DNA of 64,000 nucleotides, taken from positions 930,001 to 994,000 of the forward strand of contig NZ_NKFL01000007.1 in NCBI RefSeq assembly GCF_002223055.1, in the 5' to 3' direction. The notes beneath the pieces are model-generated. The model had not been told where the DNA came from and searched no databases. It worked only from the letters and a program-made list of their open reading frames with translations. The first letter of the stretch is position 1; each line of letters opens with the position of its first letter. This stretch comes from Burkholderia sp. HI2500. GTDB lineage: Bacteria > Pseudomonadota > Gammaproteobacteria > Burkholderiales > Burkholderiaceae. The translations under genes were made by a program, and so were the position numbers. Positions 18,705-50,356 of this stretch are shown here, piece by piece.

Positions 18705-19054
18705 GGATCCCGGCGGAAGCCGGCTGCCATGGCCGCCACGGAACGGATGACGATGCGCGAACCGTGCAGGTTCGCAAGGTCATTCAGGATGTGGCGGCCG
18801 GCAGGCTGGAACCGTGGCGAGCGGCGGAACGGCTGAATCGACGACCCGACAGGCTCGCCTGCGGGTCGCCAGGCCGCGGGAGCGCGGCCGCGAAGCGCTC
18901 CGGCCCATGCACGACTGTCGAAGCGATTGCCGGATGCGGCGCGTGATTCGACAACAGCACCGCGCAAAACCGCACCGGCCCCACTGCCATCGGTCGATCG
19001 TCAAAAGGCGACCGCCTGCCGCCGGTCGCCCGCAGCCGGTCGCCCCTCCCCGCC
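18705..19054. other. Convergent intergenic region
   Basis: 350 bases between the ends of the plus-strand oxidase and the minus-strand oxygenase. Apart from the minus-strand terminator at 19003-19030 I see no gene. A 60-codon open frame around 18764-18946 has no ribosome-binding site or domain. Confidence 0.6.
19003..19030 (-). terminator. Rho-independent terminator of the second biosynthetic operon
   Basis: Read on the minus strand: GGCGACC, a 10-base loop, GGTCGCC, then TTTT (complement of AAAA at 19003-19006). A perfect 7-bp GC stem directly followed by a T-run, 25 bases past the stop of the Asp/Asn-hydroxylase-family gene, is a good rho-independent terminator and marks the 3' end of the large operon. 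Confidence 0.7.
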
Positions 19055-19873
19055 TTACGCCGCGGCCGCTTCCGCCCACGGCGGCCGGAAATCCAGCCCG
19101 AGATGCTGGCTGATCGCCGCGTCGAGCCGCTCCACCGCGTCCCGCTCGATACGCGTGATGCCCGGATGCCAGATGTCGACGAGCAGGCAAACCCGCGGCT
19201 CGTTGCTGTCGTTCCAGCTCTCATGCTCGAACGTATCGTCGAAAATGATCGCGCGCCCGTCCGGCCACTCGCGAATCTCGTCGCCGACGCGCAGCCGCGA
19301 ACCGCGCGGCACGATCAGCGGAAGCTGGCAGGTCAGCTTCAGATTCGTCGTGTCCGTATGCGGCGGAATCCGCGTCCCGCCCTGGATCACCGAAAAGATG
19401 AAGGCGCCGCTCGGGCTGAGGAAGTCCTGCACCTGCCGCATCAGCGCCGCGGTGCGCGGGCAGCGGCGGCAATTCTCCTCGACCTCGGGCTCGCCCTTGC
19501 GCCTGAAATAGAACGACCCCCAGTCGTTGCGCCGGATCGATTCGAAACGCCCGGCCACCTGCTCTTCGTACGGCAGCAGCATCGGCGTGGTCACCTGGGC
19601 GAGAAACTCCTCGCGCAGCACGTCGACCGACGCCTCGAACGTCGACGTGAACGCCTCGAGCGCCGGATAGTCGGACGCCTCGTACCACGGCTTGCCGTCC
19701 AGCCCCGGGAAATAGAACAGCAGCGGCCGCTGATATTTCGGCAACGCGGGCAGCGGAACCCGCCCCGTGTTGATGTCGACGAACTCGATCACGCGTTCGA
19801 GCTCCGCGGTCCCGTACTGCGACACGAGCGCCTCCAGCGTCTCGTGAATCGCGATGCGCATCTCCTGTTTCAA
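19055..19873 (-). CDS. Aspartyl/asparaginyl beta-hydroxylase-family Fe(II)/2-oxoglutarate oxygenase
   Basis: A 272-aa soluble oxygenase. The C-terminal half carries the family's marks in order: HTDTTN at 172-177 (His172 is one iron ligand), DDTFEHESWND at 212-222 (His217 the second), and RVCLLVDIWHP at 227-237 (Arg for 2-oxoglutarate). The family lacks the usual Asp ligand, so the two-His site is normal. It would hydroxylate an amino-acid side chain, either free, on the carrier protein, or in the finished peptide. The start is taken as TTG at 19873, because AAGGAG lies 7 bases upstream; an ATG four codons later would sit directly on its ribosome-binding site. It is the last gene of the operon, 92 bases after the exporter gene and just before the terminator. 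Fold call strong, substrate unknown. Confidence 0.82.
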   Translation of the reverse strand: MKQEMRIAIHETLEALVSQYGTAELERVIEFVDINTGRVPLPALPKYQRPLLFYFPGLDGKPWYEASDYPALEAFTSTFEASVDVLREEFLAQVTTPMLLPYEEQVAGRFESIRRNDWGSFYFRRKGEPEVEENCRRCPRTAALMRQVQDFLSPSGAFIFSVIQGGTRIPPHTDTTNLKLTCQLPLIVPRGSRLRVGDEIREWPDGRAIIFDDTFEHESWNDSNEPRVCLLVDIWHPGITRIERDAVERLDAAISQHLGLDFRPPWAEAAAA

Positions 19874-19965
19874 AGTCGATCTCCTTGGCTATCGTGGGGT
19901 GACAAACAACAAAATTGCCGCTTCCGCATGACGCATCACACATGAATCGAAACGGTGCGCCCGGC

Positions 19966-21213
19966 CTACGCGCGCGCCGTCGTCTTCGCCTCCTCCATCG
20001 GGTCGGCGGCCCAGCCGCCGATCGACGCGCCGTACCCGGCCGCCGCCGCGACCAGCACGCCGACGCCGCACCACACCGCCTGCACGCCCCACTGGCTGAC
20101 CAGGTAGCCGAGCAGGATCGACGCGATCATGCTGCCGAGCTGGAACACCAGCGAAAAGAACGAGACGGCGCGCGATCGCAACGCATCGGGCGTCCGGTGA
20201 TGCAGCACCGCGTTGACCACCGCGCCGGCGATGCCGAGGAACAGCGCGACCCCGCTCAGCACGGCGCCGAACGCGACCACGTGATTCGCCCAGCGCGTCA
20301 GCACGAGGCTCGCGGCGAGCCCGGCGAACGGCAGCGACACGGCGAGCGCCGGCCGTGCGGCGCAATGCTTCATCACGCGATACGACACCCAGCCGCCCGC
20401 GCCCTTGACGACCAGCATCAGCGTGAGGAACAGGCCGAACGCCCAGGTCGCGCCATGCATCGGCACGAGCGTCTTCAGCACCACCGGCCAGTAGCTCTCC
20501 AGCACCGACACGACGCCGCCGAGCAGCATGCAGAGCAGGATCAGCGGCCGCACCGCGCCGCCGTGCCACGCGAAGCGCACCAGTTCGCGCAGGTCGTCGC
20601 GCATCCGGCCGGCCGGCGCGGCCTCGGGCGGCGCCTGCTCCGCCTCGGCGAAAAACCATGACGTCAGGCCCAGCAGCACGATGAACAAGCCGCCTGCGAG
20701 CGCCAGGCCGATCCGGTAAGGGTTGTCGAACAGCCGGCTGCCGATCAGGTCCGGGAGCACGCCGCCGACCAGCGACATGCTTGCCAGCCCGAGCGCGGAG
20801 GCCAGCTCCGCGCGGCCGAGAAAATAAGGAATCCGGTTCGTCTCGCCGTGCTCGCGCAGCAGGCCGACATACCACGCGTCGACGGTGCCGGAACTCATCG
20901 CGCGCGCGACGCCGAAGCTCGCCGCGGCGAGGTACAGCACCGGCTTCTGGCTGAAGCACAGCATCAGCGCGCAGCCGATGCTGTTCATCAGCAGCGAGAT
21001 GCGATAGGTCCGGATCCGGCCCACGCGGTCGGCCATCGCGCCGAACGGCAGTTCCAGCGCGATGGTCGACAGGCTGAACACCGCCGCGTAAAGCCCGATC
21101 TCGAACAGCGTGAAATGGCTGTGCAGCAGGAACAACGTGACGACCGGCAGCACGAGGCCGAAGGTGCCCCACAACGCCGCCTGCTGCAGGCAGTACCGCA
21201 GGTGGACGGTCAT
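19966..21213 (-). CDS. MFS transporter, probable product exporter
   Basis: A 415-aa integral membrane protein with about twelve hydrophobic helices and the MFS cytoplasmic-loop motif after helix 2 (GAMADRVGRIRTYR near residue 61). It probably uses the proton gradient to expel the product of the surrounding NRPS-PKS operon and so gives self-resistance. The start is ATG at 21213; it overlaps the stop of the GNAT gene by four bases (ATGA), a sign of translational coupling. Longer versions starting upstream would run through the GNAT gene in another frame and are rejected. Closest general class is drug efflux (DHA type); the cargo is inferred from context only. Confidence 0.85.
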   Translation of the reverse strand: MTVHLRYCLQQAALWGTFGLVLPVVTLFLLHSHFTLFEIGLYAAVFSLSTIALELPFGAMADRVGRIRTYRISLLMNSIGCALMLCFSQKPVLYLAAASFGVARAMSSGTVDAWYVGLLREHGETNRIPYFLGRAELASALGLASMSLVGGVLPDLIGSRLFDNPYRIGLALAGGLFIVLLGLTSWFFAEAEQAPPEAAPAGRMRDDLRELVRFAWHGGAVRPLILLCMLLGGVVSVLESYWPVVLKTLVPMHGATWAFGLFLTLMLVVKGAGGWVSYRVMKHCAARPALAVSLPFAGLAASLVLTRWANHVVAFGAVLSGVALFLGIAGAVVNAVLHHRTPDALRSRAVSFFSLVFQLGSMIASILLGYLVSQWGVQAVWCGVGVLVAAAAGYGASIGGWAADPMEEAKTTARA

Positions 21214-21653
21214 CGGCCGTCCTTGCCGCCGGACTCGAGCAGCAGGTACTCGCCGTCTTCCGAGCTGCCGGCGCCGATCTCGACGAAACCGCACGCGGCA
21301 TAGAACGCCAGCGCCGGCCCGTTGGCGCGCAGGCACTTGAGCCGGTAACGCGTGGCCGGCCAGCCCGGCAACGCGCGCAGCAGCGCCCGGCCGATGCCGC
21401 TCCGGTGGTGCGACCGGTGCACGTGCAGGTGATGGATGAAATGGTCGGGCTCCCAGACCGACACGAAGCCGGCGAGTCGCCCGCGGTCGTCCTCGGCGAC
21501 CCTCAGCCGCTCGCCTTCCGTCTGGGCCTCGAAATCGGCCAGCTGGAACGCGCCGGCCGGCTGCCAGACGAAGGTCTCGCGGCGCGAGCGCAGGAACAGT
21601 TCGCACAGGGCCGGCGTATCGGCGGCCACGGCGTCACGTACGATGATCTTCAT
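21210..21653 (-). CDS. GNAT-family N-acetyltransferase
   Basis: A 147-aa single-domain acetyltransferase. The acetyl-CoA pyrophosphate loop is visible as HHRSGIGRALLRAL near residues 85-98, preceded by the beta-4 strand HHLHVHRS and followed by LAFYAACGFVEIG, the usual GNAT end. The start is ATG at 21653 with GAGG upstream. It sits 7 bases after the serine hydrolase stop and overlaps the MFS start. In this operon it could acetylate the peptide product, either as a tailoring step or as self-protection; nothing in the sequence decides which. Family secure, substrate unknown. Confidence 0.82.
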   Translation of the reverse strand: MKIIVRDAVAADTPALCELFLRSRRETFVWQPAGAFQLADFEAQTEGERLRVAEDDRGRLAGFVSVWEPDHFIHHLHVHRSHHRSGIGRALLRALPGWPATRYRLKCLRANGPALAFYAACGFVEIGAGSSEDGEYLLLESGGKDGR

Positions 21654-21660
21654 GATGCGC

Positions 21661-23106
21661 TTACCTCGCGGCAGTCGTGGTTGCCGGGCCCGCACAGCCC
21701 GGCAGGCTCGCCATCACGTCGGCGACGAAACGTTCGGTATCCCAACTGTGGTCCACCGTCGCGCCCAGCCGCGTGATGACCGCGCGGCACGACGGCACGA
21801 TCACCACCAGCTGGTGATTGAAGCCGTCCATCATCATCAGGTCCGCCGGCAGCGACGGAAACCGGCGCGCGCCGCCGACGCCGGCGTTCAGCCACAGATG
21901 CGCGCCGAGCCGGCCGTCGTGCCGCGCCGCCTGGGGCGTCGCCATGAAGCGCACCCAGTCCGGCTCGACGATGCGCGTGCCGCGCCACACGCCTTGCTGC
22001 AGGATCAACTGGCCGAGCTTCGACCAGTCCCGCGCCGACGCCAGCATGTAGCTGCCGCCGACCAGCGTGCCCGACGCGTCGGGCTCCATCATCGCGGTGC
22101 GGATGCCGAGCGGCTCGAACAGCCGCGCCCGCGCGAACGGCACGACGTCGAGCGGCCGCGGCGAAATCGCGCGCGCGACGATCTTCGCGACCAGCACGCT
22201 GCCGCCGCTCTGGTAGTCCACCTCGCGGCCGGGCGCGACCTTCAGCGGCCGGCTCGCGACGAAGCGCGCCATGTCGGTCGACTGGTACAGCATCTTCGTC
22301 GTGTCCGAGCCGGGCAGATAGCCTTCCTGGTAATCCAGCCCGCTCGTCCATTGCAGCAGGTTGCGCAACTGGATCGCCTGGCGCGGATCGCCGGGTTGCG
22401 CCCAGTCGTCCAGCAGGTGATCCTGCGTGAGCGTCAGCTTGCCGTCGCGGGCCAGCACACCCGCCAGCAACGCGGTGACGCTTTTCGTCATCGACCAGCC
22501 GAGCAACGGGGTGTCGGCCGTGACGCCCGGCGCATACCGCTCGCCGACGAGCTTGCCATCCTGCCGCACGACCACGGCCAGCGTGTTGCGCAGCGACGCG
22601 GGCGACGGCTCCGCCATCGCGCGATCCAGCACGGCGCTCAGCGCCGGCAGCGGATCGGCCGGCGCGACATCGTCGGCGTTGCCGTAGTGGTCGACGTAGC
22701 CGGCATCGGCCGCGGCGGGCGGCAGCGCGAGGCCGCGGCCCGCCGCGCGCAATGCGTCGATCTCATCGGCCGGCGCGATCGTGCAGCCGAGGCCCGGCCG
22801 GTACAGCGCGACCGTCGAACGCAGCACGCCGAGCCCGGCGGCCTCGACGGTCTGTCGCGCCCGGTCGATCCGGTACGTGACGAAGTTGAACAACGGATTG
22901 ATCGGCTTGACTTCGCGCGCGAACAGCGCACGTGCATCGCCGTCGCCGCCGGCGAGCGCGCGCGCGCACAGGTAGTGCGACGCGTAGCCGGTGGCGGCGG
23001 GCAGCGCCCAATACAGCAGGCCCGCGGCAATCACCAGCAACAGCACGGCCGTGGCGGCGAGCATCTTGAAGGCGGCAGCGACACGGGACGGATGACGATC
23101 CGGCAT
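21661..23106 (-). CDS. Membrane-anchored serine hydrolase of the beta-lactamase/PBP superfamily
   Basis: A 481-aa protein with one N-terminal membrane helix (about 14-35, rich in A/L/V) and a periplasmic catalytic domain. It has the SxxK motif (SMTK near residue 205, Ser nucleophile), a tyrosine motif (YQS near 297) and a late DGFNHQ segment in place of KTG, the pattern of 6-aminohexanoate-dimer-hydrolase-like esterases and amidases. It is therefore probably not a true beta-lactamase. It lies inside the operon, 79 bases after the CmlA-like gene and 7 before the GNAT gene. Because the assembly line lacks a thioesterase, possible jobs are peptide maturation after export (like ClbP in colibactin) or, less likely given the membrane anchor, chain release (like SurE-type thioesterases). 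ATG at 23106 is chosen by AGGA upstream and the signal-anchor position. Confidence 0.75.
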   Translation of the reverse strand: MPDRHPSRVAAAFKMLAATAVLLLVIAAGLLYWALPAATGYASHYLCARALAGGDGDARALFAREVKPINPLFNFVTYRIDRARQTVEAAGLGVLRSTVALYRPGLGCTIAPADEIDALRAAGRGLALPPAAADAGYVDHYGNADDVAPADPLPALSAVLDRAMAEPSPASLRNTLAVVVRQDGKLVGERYAPGVTADTPLLGWSMTKSVTALLAGVLARDGKLTLTQDHLLDDWAQPGDPRQAIQLRNLLQWTSGLDYQEGYLPGSDTTKMLYQSTDMARFVASRPLKVAPGREVDYQSGGSVLVAKIVARAISPRPLDVVPFARARLFEPLGIRTAMMEPDASGTLVGGSYMLASARDWSKLGQLILQQGVWRGTRIVEPDWVRFMATPQAARHDGRLGAHLWLNAGVGGARRFPSLPADLMMMDGFNHQLVVIVPSCRAVITRLGATVDHSWDTERFVADVMASLPGCAGPATTTAAR

Positions 23107-23185
23107 GGGAGTGGTTTCCTGGTTCGACGATTCGACGAGACGAGACGACACGACACGATGCGGACGGCCGCGTGGCCGCCCGCGC

Positions 23186-24781
23186 TCAGAGGATGATTTC
23201 CTTCTTCAGGTACAGCCGCTCGGACTGGATGTCGTGCGCGTGACAGCGGGCGATCAGCTTGTCCGATTCGACGATCGGCAGCGACGTCGGCGCGTATTCG
23301 ATGCTGGAGATGAACTTGAGCCAAGGCTCCGCGCCCATCGCATAGACGAACACCTGGCGCGGCGCGAAGCACTCGACCAGCGGCCACGCGCGCTCGCAGT
23401 CGGAGCCGTTCAGCCGGCGGTTCTGGTCGAACTGCCGCCCGAGCGGCTCGTTCAGGAGCGCGCCGTACAGCCAGGACATCGGCGCGCCCTCGCATTCCAT
23501 GCCGATGAACAGCGTGCCGATCCGGCCGATGCGCTGCGCGATACGCTGGTACAGCTCCGGCTGCAGGTTGTTCGAGTCGGCCGCGAACAGCATGCTCTTG
23601 CCGTCCACCTTCAGCGCGAACGCCATCTTCGCGGCGATATGCAGATCGCCGTGCTCGCCGAGGAATGGCAGCGCCACGATCTCGCCGCCCGGCACGGGCA
23701 CGCTGTCCAGCTCGCCGACCTCGACCACCCGCTCGAACCCGCACGCCTCGAGCGCGAGCCGGATCGACGGGTCCTGCAGGAACCCGCCATGGCTGCGCGG
23801 CACCACCAGCGTGCCGATCCGGTGCCGCAGCTGCAGCAGGCTCTCGAGCACGATGTGATCCTGGTGGTTGTGGGTCAGCAGCACGTAGTCGATGCGCTCG
23901 GGCAGATCCGCGAACGTGAACGGATCGTCGCCCTGGCCGAGCGGATAGCCGACGATCGGATCGGTCAGCAGCGAAAATTCCGCGGTTTCGACCAGCACCG
24001 TCGCATGGTTGAAGTAGCGCACCCGCACCGGCTGCCCCGCGCGCGCCGGCGCCGACGGCGGGCGCGGCGGCGGCGCGTCGGTGAACCAGGTTTCGAGTGC
24101 CGCGCGCCGCTCGGCACCGCCCTCCGCGTGAACCAGCAGGCGGTCGATCAGGTCCGGCGCGGCGCCCGCGTGGCGAGCCGCGAACAGTTCGTCGTACAGC
24201 GCGTCGCGGAACGGCAGGCGGATCTGCACCATGTGCTCGTCGGGAAAGCGCGGCGTGCTGAGCATGAAGCTCCGGTCGTCGCTGGTCGCGAGGAAGCCGT
24301 TCACGCTCTGCAGCGCGTCGAGATAGCCGGCGCTGTCGTACAGCAGCCGCTCGAACAGCCGGTACGACGCGTGGCCGCGCAGGTCGTAGCCCAGCTCGAC
24401 GAAGCCCTTCAACGGCTCGGGCACCCGCGCATACAGCGGCGACAGCGTGTCGCCGCCCCCTTCCCGCGCGAGCAGCTCGTCGAGCTCGCGCAGCGCGTCC
24501 GCCAGCGCCAGCAGCGGCGCGGCGCGCGTGCGGGTGTCGCGGATCAGCGCGTCGACCGCCGGCAAGAGCTCCCGGCCGCCGTTGAGGAACGGCCCGCCGG
24601 CCATTTTCGCGGCGGAACGCCGATGCAGTTCGGGTGCGCGGATGAAGGATTCCATGATGCGCAGGTGCACCTGCTTCATCACCAGCGCGCAGGTCGCCGG
24701 CTGCAGCAGGAACGTCCACGCATACCACTGATTGACCAGCGGTTCGAAGACGACGTTCGGTTTCAGGTAGATCTGGGTCAT
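23186..24781 (-). CDS. CmlA-like dinuclear-iron amino-acid beta-hydroxylase (metallo-beta-lactamase fold)
   Basis: A 531-aa protein with an N-terminal domain of about 250 residues and a metallo-beta-lactamase-fold C-terminal domain. The metal motif THNHQDH places His304, His306, Asp308 and His309; Glu376 (LPFLGEHGD) and Asp402 (AADSNN) follow. Length and this layout, above all the extra Glu, match CmlA, the diiron enzyme of chloramphenicol synthesis that beta-hydroxylates an aminoacyl group on its NRPS carrier. So this is most likely an oxygenase acting on a residue bound to the megasynthase, not a beta-lactamase. The start lies one base past the stop of the NRPS-PKS, so both are translated together. 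Which residue is hydroxylated is unknown. A zinc hydrolase of the same fold is the alternative. Confidence 0.75.
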   Translation of the reverse strand: MTQIYLKPNVVFEPLVNQWYAWTFLLQPATCALVMKQVHLRIMESFIRAPELHRRSAAKMAGGPFLNGGRELLPAVDALIRDTRTRAAPLLALADALRELDELLAREGGGDTLSPLYARVPEPLKGFVELGYDLRGHASYRLFERLLYDSAGYLDALQSVNGFLATSDDRSFMLSTPRFPDEHMVQIRLPFRDALYDELFAARHAGAAPDLIDRLLVHAEGGAERRAALETWFTDAPPPRPPSAPARAGQPVRVRYFNHATVLVETAEFSLLTDPIVGYPLGQGDDPFTFADLPERIDYVLLTHNHQDHIVLESLLQLRHRIGTLVVPRSHGGFLQDPSIRLALEACGFERVVEVGELDSVPVPGGEIVALPFLGEHGDLHIAAKMAFALKVDGKSMLFAADSNNLQPELYQRIAQRIGRIGTLFIGMECEGAPMSWLYGALLNEPLGRQFDQNRRLNGSDCERAWPLVECFAPRQVFVYAMGAEPWLKFISSIEYAPTSLPIVESDKLIARCHAHDIQSERLYLKKEIIL

Positions 24782-24782
24782 G

Positions 24783-38822: not shown

Positions 38823-41800
38823 CAAACCAGCTCTCCCGACGATGAAAACAGTGTGAGTAGTTCGTCCATGTCGTCCGGCGCGAGGCGATCGAGCAGCGCT
38901 TCGAGGCGGGCCTCCCGCTGGGCTTTCTGGCCGAGCGCGACCAGCACCTGTGCGCTGAACCGGTCGAGCTGCGGTGCGCCGAACAGCAGCGGCGGCGACA
39001 GCAGCAGCCCGTAGCGGCCATTCAGACGCGCGATCAGCTGGATCGCCTGCACGGAGCTGCCGCCGAGCATGAAGAAATGATCGTCCGGCCCGATGTCGGC
39101 GACGTCGAGCACGGCCGACCACTCGGCGGCGACCTCGGCCTGGAACGGTGTCTTGGCGCGCGCCTCGGCGCCGCGCGCGCGCGTCTCGAGCGCCGCGTCG
39201 GCGAGCTGGGCCAGGCGCTTGCGGTCGATCTTGCCGGCCGGCAGCAGCGCGATGCGCTCCACCACGTCGATGCGCGCCGGACGCATCGATTCGGGCAGCC
39301 GCGCGGCCAGCTCCGTGTGCAGCGCGTCCACCGGCCAGCTGTCCCACCCCGCGGCCGGCTCGACGAACGCATGCAGCAGCCGCACGCGCCCGTGCACCCG
39401 CACCGGCACCACCGCGCACTGCGCGATGCCCGGCAGCGCCAGCAGGCACGCCTCGATCTCGCGCAGTTCGATCCGGTTGCCGTTGAGCTTGACCTGCTCG
39501 TCGCGCCGGCCGAGGTAATGCAGTTCACCGTGCTCGCCGAACATCGCGATGTCGCCGGTGCGGTACATGCGCGCGCCTGCACGGCCCGCGTACGGATCGG
39601 GCACGAAGCTCGCCGCGGTGAGATCCGGGCGGCCGACATACCCTTGCGCGAGCCCCGCGCCGCCGATGTACAGCTCGCCCGCGCGGCCGGGCGCGCAGGG
39701 CTCGAGGCCCGCGTCCAGCACGTACAGCGACACGTTGTCGATCGGCCGGCCGATCGGCACGCCGGCGCGCGCGTAAGCCTCGCCCGGCGCGCAATGCCAC
39801 ACGCTCACGTCGATCGCCGCCTCGGTCGGCCCGTACAGGTTGGCGAGCCGCACGCCCGGCAGCAGCCGGTGGAAGCGCTCGGCCTGCTCGGCGAGCAGCG
39901 CCTCGCCGCTGCAGACGACCAGCGCGAGATCCGGGAAGCGCTGCCCGGGCACCGCGTCCAGGAACGCGTTCAGCATCGACGGCACGAAGTGCGCGACCGC
40001 GATGCGCGCGTGGCGCAGCAGCGCCGCCAGCCCGGCCGGGTCCTTGTGCAGCTCCGGCGGCGCGATCACCAGCGCATGCCCGCTCTGCAGCGTCCACAGG
40101 AATTCCCAGACCGACACGTCGAAAAAGTACGGCGTCTTCTGCAGCACGCGCACCGGCGCGGCATCGGCGAGCAGCGAGCCGTGCCAGTCGAGCCGGTTGA
40201 CCAGCGCGCGATGCGTGTTGGCGACGCCCTTCGGCGCGCCGGTGGAGCCGGACGTGTAGATCACGTAAGCGATCCCGTCCGGGTGCAGGCGCCGCGCCGG
40301 CAGCGGCTCGGCGGCGAGCCACGCCGCCCGGTCGTCCAGCGCCTGCCGCGCGGCCGGCCCGGCGGGCAGGCGCGCCAGCAGGTGCCGCTGCGTAAGCAGC
40401 AGCGCGAGCCCGGCATCGTCGACGATGCGCCGCAGCCGCTCCGGCGGCGCGGCGGGATCGAGCGGCACGTAGGCCGCGCCCGCGCGCAGCACCGCGACGA
40501 TCGCCAGCACCATTTCCGTCGAGCGCTCGCAGCACAGCCCGACGAGGGCCCCCGGCGTCACGCCGCGCGCCGCGAGAAAACCCGCGAGCCGGGCCGACAG
40601 CGCATCCAGTTCGCGATAGGTCAGCTGCTCCGCGCCGAACTGGACGGCCGGCGCATCCGGCGTCGCGGCGCACTGCGCGGCGAAGCGGGCCGGCCAGTCC
40701 GTCGCGTCGAGCGGGCGCGCGGGCCCGTGCCAGTGGCGCGCGAGCCGCGCGCGCTGCTCGGGCGCCAGCAAGTCGACCGCGAGCGCGGGCTGCGCGTCGT
40801 CGTCCAGGTACGCGCGCAGCAGCCGGCCGAAGGACGCGGCGAACTCGCCGATCCGCGCCGCCGGCACGCGGCCCGTGTCGTATTCGAGATTCACGTGCAG
40901 GCCGTCGGGCGTCAGCTGATACGCGAAGTTCAGGTCGAACGGCCGCTCCGCGGCGACCGCCGGCAGCAATTCCGCTTGCACGCCGTGGAAGGCGAGCGGT
41001 GCGTCCTGCACGAAGAACGCTTCCGTCACGCCGACGTTGAAGACGGGCGCATCGGCCAGCGAGCGCGTGCGCCGCAGCGCCGTCACGAGATCGGTCAGCG
41101 ACAGCTGCTGATGGCGCTTGGCCTCCGCACGCTGGGCGGTGGTGCGCGCGACGATGTCGATGAACGTGTCGCCCTGCCGCAGCGAAAAGATCATCGGCAG
41201 GTTGTTCACGAAGCATCCGCTGGCCTCGCGAAAACCCGGCGAGCGCATGTTGACGGGATAAGTCACGACCAGTTCGCGCACGTCCTGCCAGCGGGCCAGC
41301 GCGATCGCGAACAGGCTCGACAGCACGAGAAACGGGGTCGACCGGCTCGCGCGGGCACGCGCGCGCAGCCGGCGCGTGATGTCCGCGTCGAAGCGCAGCC
41401 GGTGGATGCGCCCCTCGCCCGGAGCGGCCGATGCCGGTGCCGCTGCCGCTGCCGCCGCGTCGAACTCGAGCCCGAGCGGCGCGTGCGCCAGCGCGCCGAG
41501 CCAATAGGCGAGGTCTTCGTCGTAGCGCGGCGACGCGCGGTACGCGGCTTCGAACGCGAGCTGCTCGCCGAGACCGCGCAACGTGCGGGCGGGCGCCGGG
41601 CCCACGCCGAGCGCGTGGTTGTACAGCGCCGTCAGCCGCTGGTTGATGTACACCGCCGAAAACGCATCGGAGATGATGTGCGGAAAGCTGAGCACGAGCC
41701 GGTGCACGTCGGCCTCCTCGCGCAGCAGCGCGAAGCGAAACAGCGGCGCGTCGTCGAGCGCGAACACGTGCGCCGCGCGCGCGGCGATCCACGCGTCGGC

Positions 41801-42088
41801 CTCGGCGGCGTCCAGCGCCGGCGCCGCCCGCGCGTCGCGGTAGTCGAGCGCGACCGTCACGCGGTCGTGCACGTCCCGCACCACGCCGGCGTCGCCCATC
41901 CGGAACGAGCTGCGGCATCCTTCGTCATGCTCGTGGACGAACGCCTCCAGCGCGCGCCGCAGCGCGTCGCGATCCAGCGGACCCGACAGGCGGTAGACGA
42001 GCGCGGTCGTGTAGGCCGACGAGTGCGGATTGAGCTGCCACTCGAGCCAGAAGCGGTACTGATAGGCTGAAAGCGAAGTGGTACGCAT
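38822..42088 (-). CDS. NRPS, single module C-A-T (Ser predicted)
   Basis: A 1088-aa one-module synthetase, probably the start of the second assembly line. Residues 1-430 are a condensation domain whose active site reads PHIISDAFS near 138: the second His and the Asp are kept, the first His is Pro and the Gly is Ala. The A domain (YTSGSTGAPKG near 615) has the pocket DVWHVSLID-K, the Ser pattern. The T domain has LGGSSVQ near 1010, so the phosphopantetheine Ser is present although the usual Asp before it is Ser. A start-module C domain suggests that an acyl group is put on the Ser nitrogen, but the unusual motif leaves this open. ATG at 42088 has AGGGG upstream; longer frames have no support. 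Its stop overlaps the start of the hybrid synthetase by one base, so they are coupled. Confidence 0.88.
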   Translation of the reverse strand: MRTTSLSAYQYRFWLEWQLNPHSSAYTTALVYRLSGPLDRDALRRALEAFVHEHDEGCRSSFRMGDAGVVRDVHDRVTVALDYRDARAAPALDAAEADAWIAARAAHVFALDDAPLFRFALLREEADVHRLVLSFPHIISDAFSAVYINQRLTALYNHALGVGPAPARTLRGLGEQLAFEAAYRASPRYDEDLAYWLGALAHAPLGLEFDAAAAAAAPASAAPGEGRIHRLRFDADITRRLRARARASRSTPFLVLSSLFAIALARWQDVRELVVTYPVNMRSPGFREASGCFVNNLPMIFSLRQGDTFIDIVARTTAQRAEAKRHQQLSLTDLVTALRRTRSLADAPVFNVGVTEAFFVQDAPLAFHGVQAELLPAVAAERPFDLNFAYQLTPDGLHVNLEYDTGRVPAARIGEFAASFGRLLRAYLDDDAQPALAVDLLAPEQRARLARHWHGPARPLDATDWPARFAAQCAATPDAPAVQFGAEQLTYRELDALSARLAGFLAARGVTPGALVGLCCERSTEMVLAIVAVLRAGAAYVPLDPAAPPERLRRIVDDAGLALLLTQRHLLARLPAGPAARQALDDRAAWLAAEPLPARRLHPDGIAYVIYTSGSTGAPKGVANTHRALVNRLDWHGSLLADAAPVRVLQKTPYFFDVSVWEFLWTLQSGHALVIAPPELHKDPAGLAALLRHARIAVAHFVPSMLNAFLDAVPGQRFPDLALVVCSGEALLAEQAERFHRLLPGVRLANLYGPTEAAIDVSVWHCAPGEAYARAGVPIGRPIDNVSLYVLDAGLEPCAPGRAGELYIGGAGLAQGYVGRPDLTAASFVPDPYAGRAGARMYRTGDIAMFGEHGELHYLGRRDEQVKLNGNRIELREIEACLLALPGIAQCAVVPVRVHGRVRLLHAFVEPAAGWDSWPVDALHTELAARLPESMRPARIDVVERIALLPAGKIDRKRLAQLADAALETRARGAEARAKTPFQAEVAAEWSAVLDVADIGPDDHFFMLGGSSVQAIQLIARLNGRYGLLLSPPLLFGAPQLDRFSAQVLVALGQKAQREARLEALLDRLAPDDMDELLTLFSSSGELV

Positions 42089-42167
42089 GGTAGCCCCTGT
42101 CTGGATGCATGAAGGACGTGAAGGACATGGAGGACGGCGCGGCGGGTCGCGCCCGGCGCGCCGCGCG

Positions 42168-43580
42168 TCAACGGACCGCGTGGCCCGCGACGTCCGGTGC
42201 CGCGAAGTGTTCGGCGATGCAGTGGCGCAGCCGCGGCCCGAACACGGCGGCGATGTCGTCGGCCGAGTACGGCGCGATGGCGTCGTCGATGCCGAGCGTG
42301 CGATCCACCTCCTGCTGGAGCCGCGTGAAGATCCGCTGCGCGGCGCGCTCGTCGTGCAGGTACGTATTGAGCGCGTCCGCCGTCGCCCGCGCCGCCGCCG
42401 CGTCGAGCCCGTGCGCCGCGAACGCGTCGGCCGACCATGCGTCAGCGTCGCGCGGCGCATCGCGCATCGCGTCGATCTCCGCCAGCAGCGCCGGCCCGTG
42501 CGCGCCGAGCGTGGCCACGCACATCCGGTCCGCCGCGGCGACGAGCTGGTTCAGCCCGGCCGTCATCTGGCGCAGCACCGTCCCCGCCGGCCATTGCCGC
42601 GCACGCGCGATCTCGGCCTCGTCGCCCTGCAGCAGCATCGTCAGATCCTCGCGGGCGATTTCGTGCGCGAGCGGGCTCGTGTGTTCGGTGGACCAGTCCT
42701 CGAAGCGCGCCAGCGCGTCGCGGAACGCGTGCGTGCGCGCCTGCCCGGGCACCGCGTCGAGCGCGACGATCAGCGCGCGCAACTGCTGCGCCGCACGCAC
42801 CGCGAACAGGTATTTTTCGGCTTCGAGCTTCAGGAACGCCGCCGCGTAGCGGTAGAAGCCGGGCTCGGCCGCGCTCGCTTCGGCGCCCGCCGGCGGCGCC
42901 GGCTCGATCATCGCGCGATAGGCCTGCTCGACCATCGTCTGCGGCCCCGCGCACACCGAGTTGCGGCCGACGAGCAGGCCCGCCGCCTCGGCGACCAGGT
43001 AATACGCGTCGCTGGCGAGGCACGGCGCGGCCGGATCGCCGCCCGACGCCATCCGCTTGATCAGCGAGATATGCACGATCCGGTGCATGCCGAGCGAGAT
43101 CCGGTAGATGATCGACGGCACGACGGGAATGGCATCCGGGTCGGCCGGCTGCTCGCGCCGGCGGATCAGGTACGCGGGCAGCAGCTGGCACAGCTTGCTG
43201 ATGAACCACAGGTCGAGCATCGACACCGCGCCGTCGTGGCCGCGCAGGCGGCAATACCCGTCGCGCAGCGTCGAGATGGTCGGCAGCACCAGATGCCAGT
43301 GGTTCGCGAACTGCCGCAGCGACGAGATGTTCATCGGCAGCGCGTGATGAAACCGGCTGCCCTCGTACTCGCAGCGTGCGGCTTCGATCTCGATGCCGTC
43401 GCGCGCGTCGGCCGGCGCGATCTCCTCTCCGAGCGGGCGAAAGAAGCTGTCGCGATACGCGACCATCGAGCCCAGCATCGAGCGCCAGTAGAACTCCGGT
43501 TTGTCGAGCGCACGCGGCCCGTGATAGCCGGTCGCGTACAGCGCGTCGATGACGGTGAAATCAAACTCGTTCTGCATCAT
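42168..43580 (-). CDS. Unrecognised 470-aa protein of the NRPS-PKS operon
   Basis: I recognise no family. The protein is soluble, helix-rich, without signal peptide or membrane helix. It has an aromatic and His-rich N-terminal third (for example EFYWRSMLGSMVAYRDSFFR, FHHALPMN, FANHWHLVLP) and a helical C-terminal half. Clusters such as FHHALP and NHWHLVLP, with several nearby acidic residues, could bind a metal or haem, but no known motif is complete. Two adjacent ATGs (43580 and 43577) share AGGA upstream; spacing slightly favours the second. It sits 67 bases after the JmjC-type gene and 79 before the first NRPS, so it belongs to the operon and probably acts in precursor supply or tailoring. 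An oxygenase is a reasonable guess, not a claim. Confidence 0.6.
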   Translation of the reverse strand: MMQNEFDFTVIDALYATGYHGPRALDKPEFYWRSMLGSMVAYRDSFFRPLGEEIAPADARDGIEIEAARCEYEGSRFHHALPMNISSLRQFANHWHLVLPTISTLRDGYCRLRGHDGAVSMLDLWFISKLCQLLPAYLIRRREQPADPDAIPVVPSIIYRISLGMHRIVHISLIKRMASGGDPAAPCLASDAYYLVAEAAGLLVGRNSVCAGPQTMVEQAYRAMIEPAPPAGAEASAAEPGFYRYAAAFLKLEAEKYLFAVRAAQQLRALIVALDAVPGQARTHAFRDALARFEDWSTEHTSPLAHEIAREDLTMLLQGDEAEIARARQWPAGTVLRQMTAGLNQLVAAADRMCVATLGAHGPALLAEIDAMRDAPRDADAWSADAFAAHGLDAAAARATADALNTYLHDERAAQRIFTRLQQEVDRTLGIDDAIAPYSADDIAAVFGPRLRHCIAEHFAAPDVAGHAVR

Positions 43581-43647
43581 GGCTTCCTGAAGAGACACGG
43601 CCGCCGGCACGGCGGCTCGATAGAACGAACGGCGTGGCGCCGGCGCG

Positions 43648-44538
43648 TCAGCGCGGCATCGACATCGGCTTGTCGGCCGTGCCGGCCGCGCGGCCCCACC
43701 GGCGCGCGAGCGCCTGCCACAGGCTCGCGAGCTCGACCCGGCAGAAGGTCCGCACGGCGCGGGGCGACCACCACCAGTAATTCACGTTGATCGAATCGCT
43801 CAGCGATTCCACGTAGTGCCACCAGCCGGGCGGCAGGTACAGCACCTCGCCCGCCTCCAGCACGAAGTCGTGGCGCGGCGCCGACTGCACGCGCGGAAAC
43901 CGCACCGGGTCCGGATCGCTCATGTCCACCGGGCTGAAGATCACCGGCAGGTCGCGGCGCTGCCGGTAATACACGTTGGCGGACTGCCCGGGCGCAAACA
44001 GCACCCAGCGCTTGCGGCCGTACACCTGCACGTTCAGGTTCTCGTGCCGGTCGAAATGCATCGGCGACGAAATCCCGGTGGGGCCGAGCCAGAAGCCCGG
44101 CCGCAACACCAGCCTGCGCCGCAGCCAGTGCGGCATCCAGCCGGGAAAGCCGTGCTGCTCGTGCAGCGGCGCGATGTCGTCCTTCAACGCCGGCGCCGTC
44201 GAATAGATCGCCGCGTAGGTGATGTACGCCGTACGGGCGCTGCCCTGCGCCTGCATCGCCCGGATCGTTGCGCCCAGGCGTGCGGTCTCGTAGCGGCGCG
44301 CGCCCAGGTACAGGTCCGGCTGCGTCGGCGTCGGCGACAGCTGCGAGGTCTCCACCGTGATCTCGTGCTCGCCGTAGCGCTCGACGAAGAAATCCGGCGT
44401 CCAGCGCGTGCGCGCGGGCCAGGCTTCGATGAAGCCTTCCAGCACGGCCGGATGCTTCAGTCCGGCCAGAACGTCGCGCATGCTGCGGCTGCCGTCATAG
44501 CGAATCCGCGGCATCGGCACAATCTTGCTGCCAGTCAT
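43648..44538 (-). CDS. JmjC/cupin-fold Fe(II)/2-oxoglutarate oxygenase
   Basis: A 296-aa cupin-like JmjC protein. The iron-binding facial triad is visible: His161 and Asp163 in SPMHFDRHENL and His241 in LPPGWWHYVES, with the family's NVQVYGRKRWVLFAP strand near 169-183. Bacterial members hydroxylate amino acids or small molecules, so here it is likely a tailoring or precursor-forming hydroxylase for the peptide. ATG at 44538 has AGGAG upstream. It lies 28 bases after the CmlA-like gene and 67 before the unknown protein, within the operon. It is one of four oxygenase candidates in the cluster. Fold and metal site are clear, substrate is not. Confidence 0.8.
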   Translation of the reverse strand: MTGSKIVPMPRIRYDGSRSMRDVLAGLKHPAVLEGFIEAWPARTRWTPDFFVERYGEHEITVETSQLSPTPTQPDLYLGARRYETARLGATIRAMQAQGSARTAYITYAAIYSTAPALKDDIAPLHEQHGFPGWMPHWLRRRLVLRPGFWLGPTGISSPMHFDRHENLNVQVYGRKRWVLFAPGQSANVYYRQRRDLPVIFSPVDMSDPDPVRFPRVQSAPRHDFVLEAGEVLYLPPGWWHYVESLSDSINVNYWWWSPRAVRTFCRVELASLWQALARRWGRAAGTADKPMSMPR

Positions 44539-44566
44539 CGTGGGGCTCCTGTCGACGGGAAGAAAA

Positions 44567-45994
44567 TCAGGACACCTGCCAGTCGCCGTGGTGACGCAGC
44601 ACGTCGCCGGGCAGCCAGCGAATCACGCGGGTGGCGCCGCCGAGTGCGCCGATGCGCGCGTCGATCTGGTCGAGCGTTTCGGCTTCCGCGGGCTCGCCGT
44701 TGATCCAGCCGATGTCGCCGATCTCGGTGGCGATGCCGCAGAACCCGTTCGCATACGGCGCGAACGCGCGCGCGCCGGCGCGTGCGCAGAGCTCGCCGAT
44801 GCCGTCCGGGCCGAGCGTGATGGACGGGCCGTCGCCCGCCTCCGCGATGCGCGGCAGGCGTTGCAGCTCGGTCATCGGCAGCACCATCCAGAACGTGAAC
44901 AGGCCCTGCCAGAACGGCGCCTTGCGCAGTTCGCGGCAGCAGCTCAGGACCAGGTCGGGCCGGCCGCGACGGGCGACCGACTGGTCGATCACGTCCATCA
45001 CCGAGCCCTTTGCATCCTCGCCGCTGTCGACGAGCAGGATCACCGAGAACTGCGGCGTCGTGACCCGGTAGCAATTGCCCCAGTTGCGCACGTCGTGCGG
45101 CGGCACGGCCGCGCCGATGGTCGGCTGCTCGCCGTAGAACGGCAGGATGTCGATCTCGATGTCGCCGATCCGCACCGTCTCGCCCCAGCCGGGCGCGAGC
45201 ACCGTCTGCCCGACGTCACGCAGCGACTGCTGCATGTCGTCCTGCGCCAGCAGCGATGCGACCGGGATGCGCGGCACGATGACGGGCACCGATCCGTCGC
45301 CGCCGTGCCGCAGGATCGTCGGGACATGCCAGTGGTCGAGATGGCCATGCGTGACGAGCATGCCGTCGATCCGCTGGCCCAGGTTGGACGGCGCGCGATC
45401 GAGATCGGGCAGGCCGACGTTGCCGCCGATCGCGAGGCTGATCGGGTCGGTCAACAGGCGGGTGGTGTCGGAGGCGATCAGCAGCGACGCGTGTTCGAGC
45501 CGCTGGATGCCCGGGCCGTCGAACGCCGGCCACGCCAGCGCCGCGTCGTCCGTGGGCCGTTCGCAGCCGAGCAGGCGGGGATCCGCGTACAGCGCGGACA
45601 GCGGCTGCCAGTGGTTGCGCTGCAGCGCGTCGCGCAGCGCGTTCGCGAGTCGCGGCACGTCGCCGGCGGCAGTGTCGAGCACGATCGGCTCGCCGTGCCG
45701 CGGCGCGAGCGCGAGCGTCCAGCGGTCGCGCTGCTGATGCAGATCGTAGAGCAGCGCGCGGCTCGCGATACAGCCGCCGGCCGCCACCGAATCCGGATCG
45801 AACAGCTCCTCCAGGAACGGATAGCGCGCAATCGCGTCGCGCAACAGCGCGGCGCAGGCGGCCGGCTCGAATTTCGCTGCCATGAATTGCTGCATGAGCG
45901 CGTCCTGCTGCTCGATCAGCCGGCCCAGGTCATGCGCGCGCGAAGCCAGAATGCCTGTATTGAGGAAGACCCCCAGGCGATCATCGACAGACAT
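44567..45994 (-). CDS. Second CmlA-like metallo-beta-lactamase-fold beta-hydroxylase candidate
   Basis: A 475-aa protein with the same plan as the gene at 23186-24781: an N-terminal domain (~165 residues, shorter here) and a metallo-beta-lactamase-fold domain with THGHLDH (His216, His218, Asp220, His221), LPFYGEQ (Glu289) and LLVDSGED (Asp323). The extra Glu in a PF-x-GE context is shared by both and fits the CmlA group of diiron hydroxylases. The two proteins are otherwise quite different, so they probably serve different residues or steps. ATG at 45994 is chosen; an in-frame GTG 20 codons upstream lacks support. It follows MbtH by 128 bases and precedes the JmjC gene by 28. It could also be a zinc hydrolase. 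Confidence 0.65.
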   Translation of the reverse strand: MSVDDRLGVFLNTGILASRAHDLGRLIEQQDALMQQFMAAKFEPAACAALLRDAIARYPFLEELFDPDSVAAGGCIASRALLYDLHQQRDRWTLALAPRHGEPIVLDTAAGDVPRLANALRDALQRNHWQPLSALYADPRLLGCERPTDDAALAWPAFDGPGIQRLEHASLLIASDTTRLLTDPISLAIGGNVGLPDLDRAPSNLGQRIDGMLVTHGHLDHWHVPTILRHGGDGSVPVIVPRIPVASLLAQDDMQQSLRDVGQTVLAPGWGETVRIGDIEIDILPFYGEQPTIGAAVPPHDVRNWGNCYRVTTPQFSVILLVDSGEDAKGSVMDVIDQSVARRGRPDLVLSCCRELRKAPFWQGLFTFWMVLPMTELQRLPRIAEAGDGPSITLGPDGIGELCARAGARAFAPYANGFCGIATEIGDIGWINGEPAEAETLDQIDARIGALGGATRVIRWLPGDVLRHHGDWQVS

Positions 45995-46122
45995 GGTGTG
46001 TTTACCCTCGGATTCTCTCGGCGAAACGCTGCATGCGCCCGCGCGCCCCGTCACCGGGCCGCGAGAGGCCGCATCGTTCCTTTATCTTTTATTGCGCCGT
46101 GCGTGGCGCGACGCGTCGACCG

Positions 46123-46332
46123 TCAGGCCGACAGCGCGACCCGGACGCTCAATGGCCGCATGTCGGTCCAGTTGGCGTTGATCCATTCGAGACAGGCGTC
46201 CCGGGTTCCCGACGGGCCCGCCGCCCGCCAGCCGTCCGGCACGCGCTTGTCGTCCGGCCAGATCGCGTATTGTTCCTCGTGATTGACGACCACCTTGAAA
46301 ATGGTGTCGTGGTTCGGCATTTCGGCTTCCAT
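46123..46332 (-). CDS. MbtH-like protein
   Basis: A 69-aa MbtH-family protein with the family signature: [10 protein letters not shown] near 17-26, VPDGWR near 31 and the closing [14 protein letters not shown]. MbtH proteins bind A domains of NRPSs and help them fold and work, so this one probably serves the Ser, Val and unassigned A domains of this operon. An ATG four codons later (46320) is an alternative start. It is the first gene of the operon and faces the stand-alone thioesterase across an AT-rich intergenic region. Confidence 0.93.
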
Positions 46333-46662
46333 GTCTCTCTCGTTTCAATAATCGATCAAGCGTGTCACACGCATAACATGATTCGATATTTCTATAAAAA
46401 CAGCACGCCCAGCCATGCCGGGTAACGATGCAAGCACTTTGAAATCGAAGCGAGCAGACTTTACCATAAGCCATCCGAAAACAATTACATTTCTATTGAA
46501 TAAAAACAAAGCAAATCATAAGCGGCGCCGGCCAATAATCCCGGCCATTGTTTATAAATATGTGAATCGATGACAAACAATCTGTCCTTTCGATTAAATC
46601 GATAATCGGCTTAATTGTTTGAATATTTTGTATGGTTCGTTTTTAAAGCGGAGTCCCGACGC
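46333..46662. promoter_or_regulatory. AT-rich divergent promoter region of the NRPS-PKS cluster
   Basis: 330 bases between MbtH (minus) and the thioesterase (plus), strikingly AT-rich against the flanking genes (A and T runs around 46485-46625). It must contain the start sites of both transcripts. I see several AT-rich hexamers but no pair with convincing -35/-10 spacing, and no clear operator palindrome, so no exact promoter is given. No pathway-specific regulator gene lies directly next to it. Confidence 0.6.
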
Positions 46663-47463
46663 ATGGCCTTGCTACCCAGTACCCTCACCATCCCGCGCGA
46701 GCGCCCGACGGCTCGGCACCGGCTGCTGGTGTTCCATCACGCGTGCGGCGCGGCGGCCAATTACTACCGGTGGGCGGCGTCCTTCCCGGACGATATCGAG
46801 GTCTGGCTGATCGAGCTGCCCGGTCGCGGCAAAAGCCTGGGCACGCGCGCGATCGATACGTTGTCCGAACTGATCGACTTCCTGCGGGCGCTCCGGCCGC
46901 TGCTGCCGCGCGACTACGCGGTGTTCGGCCACAGCATGGGGGCGCTGATCGCGTACTGTTTCGCGCGCGACATGGCGCAACTGGGGCATCCGCCCGTCTG
47001 GCTCGGTGCGTCCGGCACCGATGCGCCGTTCTACCCGCATCGCCACGCGCCGCTTGATGGCGCGCCGGTGCACCGGCGCAACGACGCGGACATCGTCGAC
47101 TATGTCGTGTCGCTCGGCGGCACGCCGCGCGAGGTAGCTGAGCACGACGCGCTGCGGGCGATGCTGCTGAAGCTGGCCAAGGCGGATTTCCGCGTGATCG
47201 AGGCGTGCTTCCCGCTGCCGTCCGCAACGGCGCTGCCCTGCCCCGTCACGGTCTTCTCGGGCCGCGACGATACGTTGCTGAGCCCCGCCGGGCAGCGTGA
47301 CTGGTTGCGCGCATCACGGCACACGGTCACCTTTCGCGCGTTCGACGGCGGGCACTTCTATCTGTTGGAAAACCCGGCCGCCGTTCAGCACGCGATCGGC
47401 GAGGCGCTGGCCGATGCGGTGCGATGCGACACCGCCGAGGCGTCGGCCGGCCCGTGCCGCTGA
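46663..47463 (+). CDS. Type II (stand-alone) thioesterase
   Basis: A 266-aa alpha/beta-hydrolase of the NRPS/PKS type II thioesterase family (GrsT/SrfD-like). It has FHHACGAAANYYRWA near 25 (the family's FPxAGG region), the nucleophile elbow GHSMG near 91 and the closing catalytic His in FDGGHFYLL near 230. Such enzymes remove wrong acyl groups from carrier domains; in a line without an integrated thioesterase it could also take part in release. ATG at 46663 has GGAG 9 bases upstream. It is divergent from MbtH and shares the AT-rich promoter region with the operon. Family call is strong. Confidence 0.88.
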   Translation: MALLPSTLTIPRERPTARHRLLVFHHACGAAANYYRWAASFPDDIEVWLIELPGRGKSLGTRAIDTLSELIDFLRALRPLLPRDYAVFGHSMGALIAYCFARDMAQLGHPPVWLGASGTDAPFYPHRHAPLDGAPVHRRNDADIVDYVVSLGGTPREVAEHDALRAMLLKLAKADFRVIEACFPLPSATALPCPVTVFSGRDDTLLSPAGQRDWLRASRHTVTFRAFDGGHFYLLENPAAVQHAIGEALADAVRCDTAEASAGPCR

Positions 47464-47495
47464 CGTCGACGCGCGCGGTGATGCCGGCCGTCGCG

Positions 47496-47513
47496 CGGGC
47501 GCCAGGGCGCCCG
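47496..47513. terminator. GC-rich hairpin between convergent genes
   Basis: CGGGCGCC, AG, GGCGCCCG: a perfect 8-bp stem with a 2-base spacer in the 76-base gap between the thioesterase and the TetR gene. There is no T-run, so it is only a possible transcription barrier. Confidence 0.35.
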
Positions 47514-47539
47514 GGCGGCCAGCCGCCGCGACGCATGCG

Positions 47540-50348: not shown

Positions 50349-50356
50349 GCGGTAAC

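What the first reader, a model, noticed from the sequence alone, without database searches (positions are those of the whole stretch)
19055..47463. A complete hybrid NRPS-PKS cluster I cannot match to a known product
One minus-strand operon of 12 genes, with gaps of at most ~128 bases and several overlaps, holds all parts of a pathway: MbtH, five tailoring candidates, two synthetases, an acetyltransferase, an exporter and a serine hydrolase, plus a divergent type II thioesterase. It ends at a rho-independent terminator. The predicted backbone Ser-Val-X-(unreduced malonate)-Y with several hydroxylations fits none of the Burkholderia products I know (occidiofungin, ornibactin, malleobactin, glidobactin, fragin, icosalide).
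Basis: partly seen in the sequence, partly recalled or inferred. Interest (0 to 1): 0.85.

Follow-up and report, generated by a model that had tools for sequence, protein, structure and literature searches.

The report
Orphan peptide-polyketide cluster with odd terminus
Several Burkholderia and a few related bacteria carry a gene set, 28 kb long here and found at different genome sites, that is predicted to make an unidentified hydroxylated peptide-polyketide, and its assembly enzyme ends in an altered domain that likely takes part in freeing the product in an unusual way.

Summary
Eleven (not twelve) minus-strand genes, 19055-46332, with gaps of at most 128 bases, plus a divergent type II thioesterase, encode one NRPS-PKS pathway. 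Adenylation codes read Ser, Val, X, Y around one unreduced malonate module. Four of four relatives fetched across the whole cluster keep all 11 genes in order. Ten full-length orthologues of the large synthetase are listed, seven of them named Burkholderia, Chromobacterium or Janthinobacterium. Myxococcus has the same Ser-Val-X'-malonate-Y plan, with an identical nine-residue code at Y. One genome shows the empty insertion site, and two carry the island at other sites. A 469-aa tailoring protein belongs to an undescribed helical family. No known product found, but MIBiG could not be searched. Best reading: an orphan, horizontally moving family making a hydroxylated acyl-Ser-Val-X-C2-Y chain, probably closed to a tetramic acid on release (inferred).

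The parts
19003..19030 (-). terminator-like hairpin (8-bp stem, 8-base loop) and TTTT at the operon end
   Evidence: sequence and position, fold z -1.54; not listed by the scan
19055..19861 (-). AspHyd: aspartyl/asparaginyl beta-hydroxylase family, 268 aa
   Evidence: PF05118 E 2.2e-45; HxD and H motifs
19966..21213 (-). MFS exporter, 415 aa
   Evidence: PF07690 E 1.1e-25
21210..21653 (-). GNAT acetyltransferase, 147 aa
   Evidence: PF00583
21661..23106 (-). SerHyd: PF00144 serine hydrolase, 481 aa, SxxK motif and an N-terminal hydrophobic anchor, predicted to face the periplasm
   Evidence: PF00144 E 4.6e-27; hydropathy and motifs
23186..24781 (-). CmlA/FrsH-type diiron beta-hydroxylase, 531 aa
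   Evidence: CmlA_N E 3.2e-67; PDB 8a90 E 2.5e-135 and CmlA E 3.4e-112; HNHQDH and GEH motifs
24783..38822 (-). NRPS2, 4679 aa: C-A(Val)-T-C-A(X)-T-KS-AT-T-C-A(Y)-T-E*
   Evidence: Pfam, domain mapping, codes
24786..26123 (-). E*: terminal epimerization-type domain without catalytic His and Glu
   Evidence: PDB sequence match, motif comparison, tree
26406..27887 (-). A domain Y, code DVENVGAIT, identical in Myxococcus
29904..30725 (-). acyltransferase domain, HAFH motif (malonyl type, recalled)
   Evidence: PF00698, motif
31155..32276 (-). ketosynthase domain; no reductive domain was listed in the module
   Evidence: PF00109/PF02801
38822..42088 (-). NRPS1, 1088 aa: C-A(Ser)-T; first C has PHxxSDA instead of HHxxxDG
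   Evidence: Pfam, motifs, code
42168..43577 (-). U470: 469-aa helical protein of an undescribed family
   Evidence: no Pfam or NCBIfam family above cut-off, no PDB sequence match, no confident fold match; 17 database rows, one of them a short odd frame
43648..44538 (-). JmjC/Cupin_8 2-oxoglutarate oxygenase family, 296 aa
   Evidence: PF13621 E 3.1e-43; HFD...H motif
44567..45994 (-). second MBL-fold protein, 475 aa, CmlA-like in the metal region, without CmlA_N
   Evidence: CmlA E 1.9e-6; HGHLDH and GEQ motifs
46123..46332 (-). MbtH-like protein, 69 aa
   Evidence: PF03621 E 6.8e-22
46663..47463 (+). divergent type II thioesterase, 266 aa; not next to the G412 copy
   Evidence: PF00975 E 2.1e-37
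18739..47513 (.). stretch absent from the empty site in G409 (edges good to about 8 bases): the island
   Evidence: blastn against L070

Best explanation
This island encodes a five-module NRPS-PKS line that is predicted to build an N-acylated Ser-Val-X-malonate-Y chain and, as it ends in an altered epimerization-type domain (E*) instead of a thioesterase, would likely let the chain go by closing its unreduced beta-keto end onto the last residue as a tetramic acid. Shown: domain order, substrate codes, the missing thioesterase domain, loss of both epimerase catalytic residues, conservation, the empty site and the other sites. Inferred: (1) a first C domain acylates Ser; (2) the CmlA-type enzyme beta-hydroxylates carrier-bound Val, as FrsH does Leu, with JmjC, Asp-hydroxylase-type and possibly U470/MBL enzymes adding further oxidations; (3) the C2 unit stays a beta-ketone because the module has no ketoreductase; (4) Y is added and E*, holding the last carrier protein, shelters or helps a Dieckmann-type closure instead of epimerizing; (5) the adjoining GNAT, MFS and anchored serine hydrolase likely mask the product in the cytoplasm, export it and unmask it outside. 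The whole set appears to spread between strains as a unit.
For: Domain order and lack of reductive or thioesterase domains in NRPS2. Codes for Ser, Val, X and Y. A beta-keto unit followed by one C-A-T is the plan of known tetramate lines (recalled). Terminal domain: matches PvdL, tyrocidine synthase 1 and gramicidin S synthase 1 chains by sequence (that these stretches are E domains is recalled) and groups with E domains in a tree (E* and E together 100/100, apart from C; 18 canonical E rows form a clade 96/98 without the 7 E* rows). Motif HGLVADSHGW and LGRHGR against HHxxxDGVSW and LExHGR in the genome's own E domains. 11 of 11 NRPS2 sequences keep the altered motif at 58-98% overall identity, so the domain is maintained, not decaying. 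The divergent type II thioesterase is not next to the G412 copy and its best-scoring relative in that genome is 35% identical, so release does not seem to depend on it. CmlA-type enzyme; FrsH acts on carrier-bound Leu (PMC7794379, passages). Synteny 4 of 4; empty site in G409 and other sites in MS389 and LK29. Anchor on the serine hydrolase.
Against: No metabolite, expression or enzyme data. A tetramate-forming E-type domain is not known to me. X and Y are unassigned, so whether Y can close a ring is unknown. Thioesterases elsewhere in the genome (G412 has six matches of 29-38% identity) or hydrolysis could release the chain. E* monophyly with Myxococcus is unresolved (48% of bootstrap trees), and the Myxococcus motif HFLIADGVTW is less altered than HGLVADSHGW. 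The first C domain has a weakened motif (PHxxSDA), so acylation of Ser is uncertain. Both U470 fold searches gave no confident match. Of the four C domains only two match Myxococcus best by position; C1 does not and C0 is tied.
Confidence: 0.4

Rival explanations
1. Same line, but the chain is hydrolysed or cyclised off by a separate enzyme: the divergent thioesterase, or a PF00144 hydrolase working like the penicillin-binding-protein-type thioesterase SurE, which serves lines that end in T-E.
For: Line ends in T-E* with no thioesterase and the operon holds a PF00144 protein with SxxK; SurE logic is recalled.
Against: The PF00144 protein has an N-terminal hydrophobic anchor with positive residues before it, so it is predicted to lie outside the cytoplasm; the divergent thioesterase is not next to the G412 copy and has no close relative there; E* has lost the epimerase residues.
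Confidence: 0.27
2. E* is a spent domain kept only as a structural end cap; the chain leaves the line slowly by itself or by general thioesterases.
For: Catalytic His and Glu are both gone.
Against: The altered motif is itself conserved (ADSHxW, GxHGRD, GCFVCD) in 11 of 11 sequences, which fits a kept function better than decay.
Confidence: 0.15
3. The C2 unit is oxidatively trimmed on the line (for example by U470) so that the product is an alpha-ketoamide protease inhibitor of the poststatin or myxoprincomide type (structures recalled).
For: U470 and a JmjC enzyme accompany Ser-Val-X-malonate-Y lines in both phyla; myxobacterial products with beta-hydroxyvaline exist (PMC10099666, passages).
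Against: U470 has no known fold or function; a distant relative sits beside NRPS ORFs in which I saw no ketosynthase motif.
Confidence: 0.1
4. Already known product that these tools could not dereplicate.
For: MIBiG and most subscription papers are not held; the cluster is in well-studied species such as B. ambifaria and B. contaminans.
Against: Six paper searches (two returned no paper) and nine papers' passages gave no matching pathway.
Confidence: 0.12

Closest known systems
Myxococcus sp. CA023 FAAL-NRPS-PKS line (L006/G827; uncharacterised)
   Same: Codes for Ser, Val and Y (Y identical over nine residues), KS-AT-T before Y, E* end, U470 and JmjC genes.
   Different: Starts with a fatty acyl-AMP ligase; X code differs (DIVQVGIIW); no match to the MBL, CmlA, GNAT, MFS, serine hydrolase or Asp-hydroxylase proteins at E 1e-5 in the 21 kb of L006 searched (the rest of that region was not searched for them).
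FR900359 (frs) cluster
   Same: CmlA/FrsH-type beta-hydroxylase and MbtH partner (PMC7794379 passages).
   Different: Depsipeptide made by NRPSs and released by thioesterase domains, as the passages describe it.
PKS-NRPS tetramate lines (HSAF, equisetin, reutericyclin type; recalled)
   Same: Unreduced malonate followed by a single terminal C-A-T.
   Different: They end in a thioesterase or reductase-like domain; here E*.
Glidobactin/syringolin lines (recalled)
   Same: NRPS module, PKS extension, last NRPS module in one protein.
   Different: Those have reductive domains and a thioesterase; here neither was listed.
Corramycin and vioprolide (Myxococcota)
   Same: Idea of a masked precursor exported and hydrolysed outside; beta-hydroxyvaline in corramycin (PMC10099666 passages).
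   Different: Corramycin: twelve modules, FAAL start, thioesterase domain.

Membership tests
Hybrid NRPS-type I PKS line | C-A-T modules and a KS-AT-T module in one line | tested here: met
Canonical NRPS epimerization domain | E-type sequence, following a T domain | tested here: met
Canonical NRPS epimerization domain | catalytic His of HHxxxDG | tested here: not met
   HG in 11 of 11 Burkholderia-type, HF in Myxococcus; HH in 18 of 18 canonical rows, three mis-cut C rows set aside
Canonical NRPS epimerization domain | catalytic Glu of ExHGR | tested here: not met
   G at this place in 11 of 11 and in Myxococcus; E in 18 of 18 canonical rows, three mis-cut C rows set aside
CmlA/FrsH diiron beta-hydroxylases (23186-24781) | CmlA_N domain joined to an MBL domain with HxHxDH and GEH | tested here: met
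CmlA/FrsH diiron beta-hydroxylases (44567-45994) | CmlA_N domain and GEH motif | tested here: not met
   no CmlA_N; GEQ in place of GEH
Tetramate-forming PKS-NRPS lines | unreduced PKS module before one last C-A-T | tested here: met
Tetramate-forming PKS-NRPS lines | terminal thioesterase or reductase-like Dieckmann domain | tested here: not met
   none listed by Pfam
SurE-type trans-acting thioesterases (21661-23106) | PF00144 domain with SxxK | tested here: met
SurE-type trans-acting thioesterases (21661-23106) | cytoplasmic protein | tested here: inconclusive
   N-terminal hydrophobic anchor by hydropathy only
Known MIBiG products of Burkholderia | same domain order and tailoring set | not testable with these tools
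   MIBiG not held; paper searches only

The most novel reading that the evidence does not exclude
E* is a new kind of NRPS release domain: an epimerization-type fold that lost its epimerase residues and now closes the beta-ketoacyl-aminoacyl thioester to a tetramic acid. It defines a family of hydroxylated Ser-Val-X-tetramate peptides shared by Burkholderia, Chromobacterium, Janthinobacterium and myxobacteria, with U470 as a new class of tailoring enzyme.
Probability: 0.2. Interest if true: 0.78.

Novelty: new variant of a known kind. Interest (0 to 1): 0.5.

Why it matters
An orphan pathway present in many Burkholderia strains (for example 59 member sequences in the B. ambifaria cluster), conserved down to substrate codes, moving as a unit and using a line end without precedent that I know, makes two questions testable: how an NRPS without a thioesterase lets its product go, and what the undescribed U470 family does. 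If E* is a release domain, reading it as an epimerase (as its family match would suggest) would be wrong.

Tried and rejected

Myxoprincomide and corramycin as the myxobacterial counterpart: passages read. Corramycin has 12 modules and does not fit; myxoprincomide's structure was not given in the passages seen, so it is not excluded.

U470 as diagnostic of this backbone: rejected. A distant relative in G910 lies beside a different FAAL-NRPS run, and U470-like domains in longer frames occur widely in Myxococcales.

A single origin of E*: not settled. Three rows cut by script as E domains (L076_1, L077_1, L079_1) fell among C domains; I set them aside before counting 18 of 18. The tree used 6 of the 11 Burkholderia-type E* sequences plus Myxococcus, and E rows from 7 database proteins and 4 own-genome loci that I picked.

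Slips mended: the first checkpoint note reads one A4 code position wrongly; the aligned reading DVENVGAIT replaces it. The second note gives 16617 as the left edge of the empty-site match; that number belongs to B. lata, and for G409 it is 15896. The NRPS2 query was out of frame, so its rows there are not used; and later use the right frame.

X as glycine: A3 is closest among PDB chains to the second A domain of linear gramicidin synthase, but its code is not a glycine code known to me; left open. Paper searches (alpha-ketoamide) found nothing; 100 (Dieckmann, epimerization) listed six papers that I did not open.
Full report
What is there. The stretch 19055-46332 holds 11 minus-strand genes with ATG starts, no internal stops and gaps of -4 to +128 bases; a thioesterase gene runs the other way at 46663-47463. 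In the order of transcription: MbtH (PF03621), an MBL-fold protein, a JmjC/Cupin_8 oxygenase, a 469-aa protein without any Pfam or NCBIfam family above cut-off (here U470), NRPS1, NRPS2, a CmlA-type hydroxylase, a PF00144 serine hydrolase, a GNAT acetyltransferase, an MFS exporter and an aspartyl/asparaginyl-hydroxylase-type enzyme. A hairpin followed by TTTT lies just behind the last gene, but it folds only modestly better than shuffles (z -1.54) and the terminator scan did not list it.

The line. NRPS1 is C-A-T; NRPS2 is C-A-T-C-A-T-KS-AT-T-C-A-T followed by one more condensation-family domain. Pfam lists no ketoreductase, dehydratase, enoylreductase or thioesterase in NRPS2 (E up to 1e-6). 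Nine-residue codes are DVWHVSLID, DAFWVGGTF, DVTNFAAIY and DVENVGAIT; the first two are Ser and Val codes (recalled), the others are unassigned. The acyltransferase has the HAFH motif of malonyl-type domains (recalled). The first C domain has PHIISDA in place of HHxxxDG, keeping the second His.

The odd end. By sequence the last domain matches PvdL, tyrocidine synthase 1 and gramicidin S synthase 1 chains in the PDB best or nearly so (that these stretches are E domains is recalled). I compared it with the four best E-type matches elsewhere in the same genome (of 14 further matches, some of them C domains). Where all four have HHxxxDGVSW it has HGLVADSHGW, and where the three with readable letters have LExHGR it has LGRHGR (a motif check finds ExHGR in the fourth too). 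The ten full-length orthologues listed from the protein database (P0018-P0027, a capped list; 58-98% identity to NRPS2) share the altered pattern, so 11 of 11 with the window. In a tree of 33 domains, 18 canonical E rows form one clade (96/98), and the 7 E* rows (6 of the 11, plus Myxococcus) lie outside it but with the E side (100/100), apart from C domains; three rows that my script mis-cut as E fell among C domains and are not counted. Whether E* arose once is unresolved (48% of bootstrap trees). I read E* as a kept, re-purposed domain.

Distribution. The U470 profile finds 6 of 65 genomes of the genus, the window's own included, 1 of 399 drawn from the order, the window's own, and 2 of 369 drawn from the class, the own and one weak partial match. 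Named carriers are B. lata, B. arboris, B. cepacia LK29 and Burkholderia sp. MS389, besides Myxococcus sp. CA023. Database orthologues of NRPS2 are labelled B. contaminans, Burkholderia sp. AU15512, B. ambifaria, B. sola, B. glumae, Chromobacterium amazonense and Janthinobacterium agaricidamnosum, and three of the ten have no name. The divergent thioesterase is present in four of these five and not found in the 36 kb fetched from G412; in the whole G412 genome its best-scoring relative is 35% identical and the six matches span 29-38%. The NRPS2 gene of G412 carries one in-frame stop near the second T domain, while a full-length B. glumae-labelled protein exists; whether G412 is B. glumae was not established.

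A cousin in another phylum. Myxococcus sp. CA023 (L006) carries U470 (35% identity) and two JmjC proteins (42% and 33%) next to two synthetases. Their codes are DVWHFSLVD, DAFWLGGTF, DIVQVGIIW and, after a KS-AT-T module, DVENVGAIT, identical to Y. The Ser, Val and Y adenylation domains and E* match best at the same position; X matches the Ser domain best. Of four C domains two match by position, one does not and one is tied. As controls, the Myxococcus E* scores 185 bits to ours against 105 for the best E domain of the window's own genome (one program); the Y domain scores 307 bits to its Myxococcus partner (BLASTP) and 238 to the next best A domain in its own genome (another program, so only a rough comparison). 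The Myxococcus line starts with a fatty acyl-AMP ligase. A second genome (G944) has U470 and JmjC neighbours, but its contig ends just inside the synthetase. Of 145 genomes in that order 32 match the U470 profile at E <= 1e-10, only these two over full length.

A moving island. In G409 the sequence matching window 15896-18738 (92.3%) continues directly into that matching 47514-55904 (94.1%): an empty site missing the stretch from about 18739 to 47513. B. lata has the cluster at the window's site, whereas in MS389 and LK29 the match is confined to 19027/19030-47434/47437, with no match to the window outside it in the stretches fetched. I looked at one empty site only, and I did not search for a recombinase.

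How it probably works. CmlA-type enzymes hydroxylate amino acids bound to T domains; FrsH does this to Leu (PMC7794379, passages). The window's enzyme is close to them and keeps HxHxDH and GEH, so carrier-bound Val is the likely target. A beta-ketone followed by one amino acid and no thioesterase is the arrangement from which known lines make tetramic acids by Dieckmann closure (recalled); here the usual closing domain is replaced by E*. The serine hydrolase has an N-terminal anchor preceded by basic residues and is followed by GNAT and MFS genes with a 7-base gap and a 4-base overlap, which suggests acetylation inside, export, and hydrolysis outside. A masked-precursor scheme has been proposed for corramycin (PMC10099666, passages). 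The mechanism in this paragraph is inference.

Literature seen. Passages only: PMC11619377, PMC9958762, PMC4905989, PMC10821513, PMC10099666, PMC11837247, PMC7794379, PMC13372681, PMC10826400. No paper was read whole. Searches did not turn up this cluster (two returned no paper); the library lacks most subscription journals and MIBiG is not held, so absence from print is not claimed.

Verdict. Observation confirmed with corrections; interpretation partly supported. New variant of a known kind; interest 0.5, because orphan NRPS-PKS clusters are common, but the conserved non-epimerase end, the cross-phylum backbone and the mobile unit make this one worth a bench test.

Noticed in passing
window 965-10480 (+); G000:C7:911-940 kb: Another NRPS ORF of 3171 aa (three condensation-family, two A and three T domains, thioesterase) is part of a run of NRPS ORFs that begins outside the window, with an ABC transporter (11693-13396) and two LuxR-type regulators (13419-14450, 14753-15637).
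   Followed up: no
L026, L031, L035, L040 and others: In Myxococcales genomes a U470-like domain occurs in longer frames; in the four that I read it follows an extra N-terminal stretch of 100 aa or more, and some genomes have up to four matches. L026 lies beside an ORF that looks TolC-like to me (not tested). No family model matched the three tested (L026 against Pfam, L031 and L035 against NCBIfam).
   Followed up: partly
L058 (G910): A distant U470 relative sits near a different FAAL-NRPS run in which no ketosynthase motif was seen.
   Followed up: partly
L021 (G412): The large synthetase gene holds one in-frame stop near its second T domain in this genome; full-length relatives exist elsewhere.
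   Followed up: no
window 48294-50348 and 16806-18704: Genes flanking the island: a squalene-hopene cyclase and a cholesterol-oxidase-family FAD enzyme; they are neighbours in G409, which lacks the island at this site.
   Followed up: yes
window 51634-53025 (-): A second PF00144 beta-lactamase-family gene, outside the island.
   Followed up: no
window 18731-18738 / 47514-47521: At the empty site the two flanks overlap by about 8 bases; it may be a chance overlap of the two alignments.
   Followed up: partly
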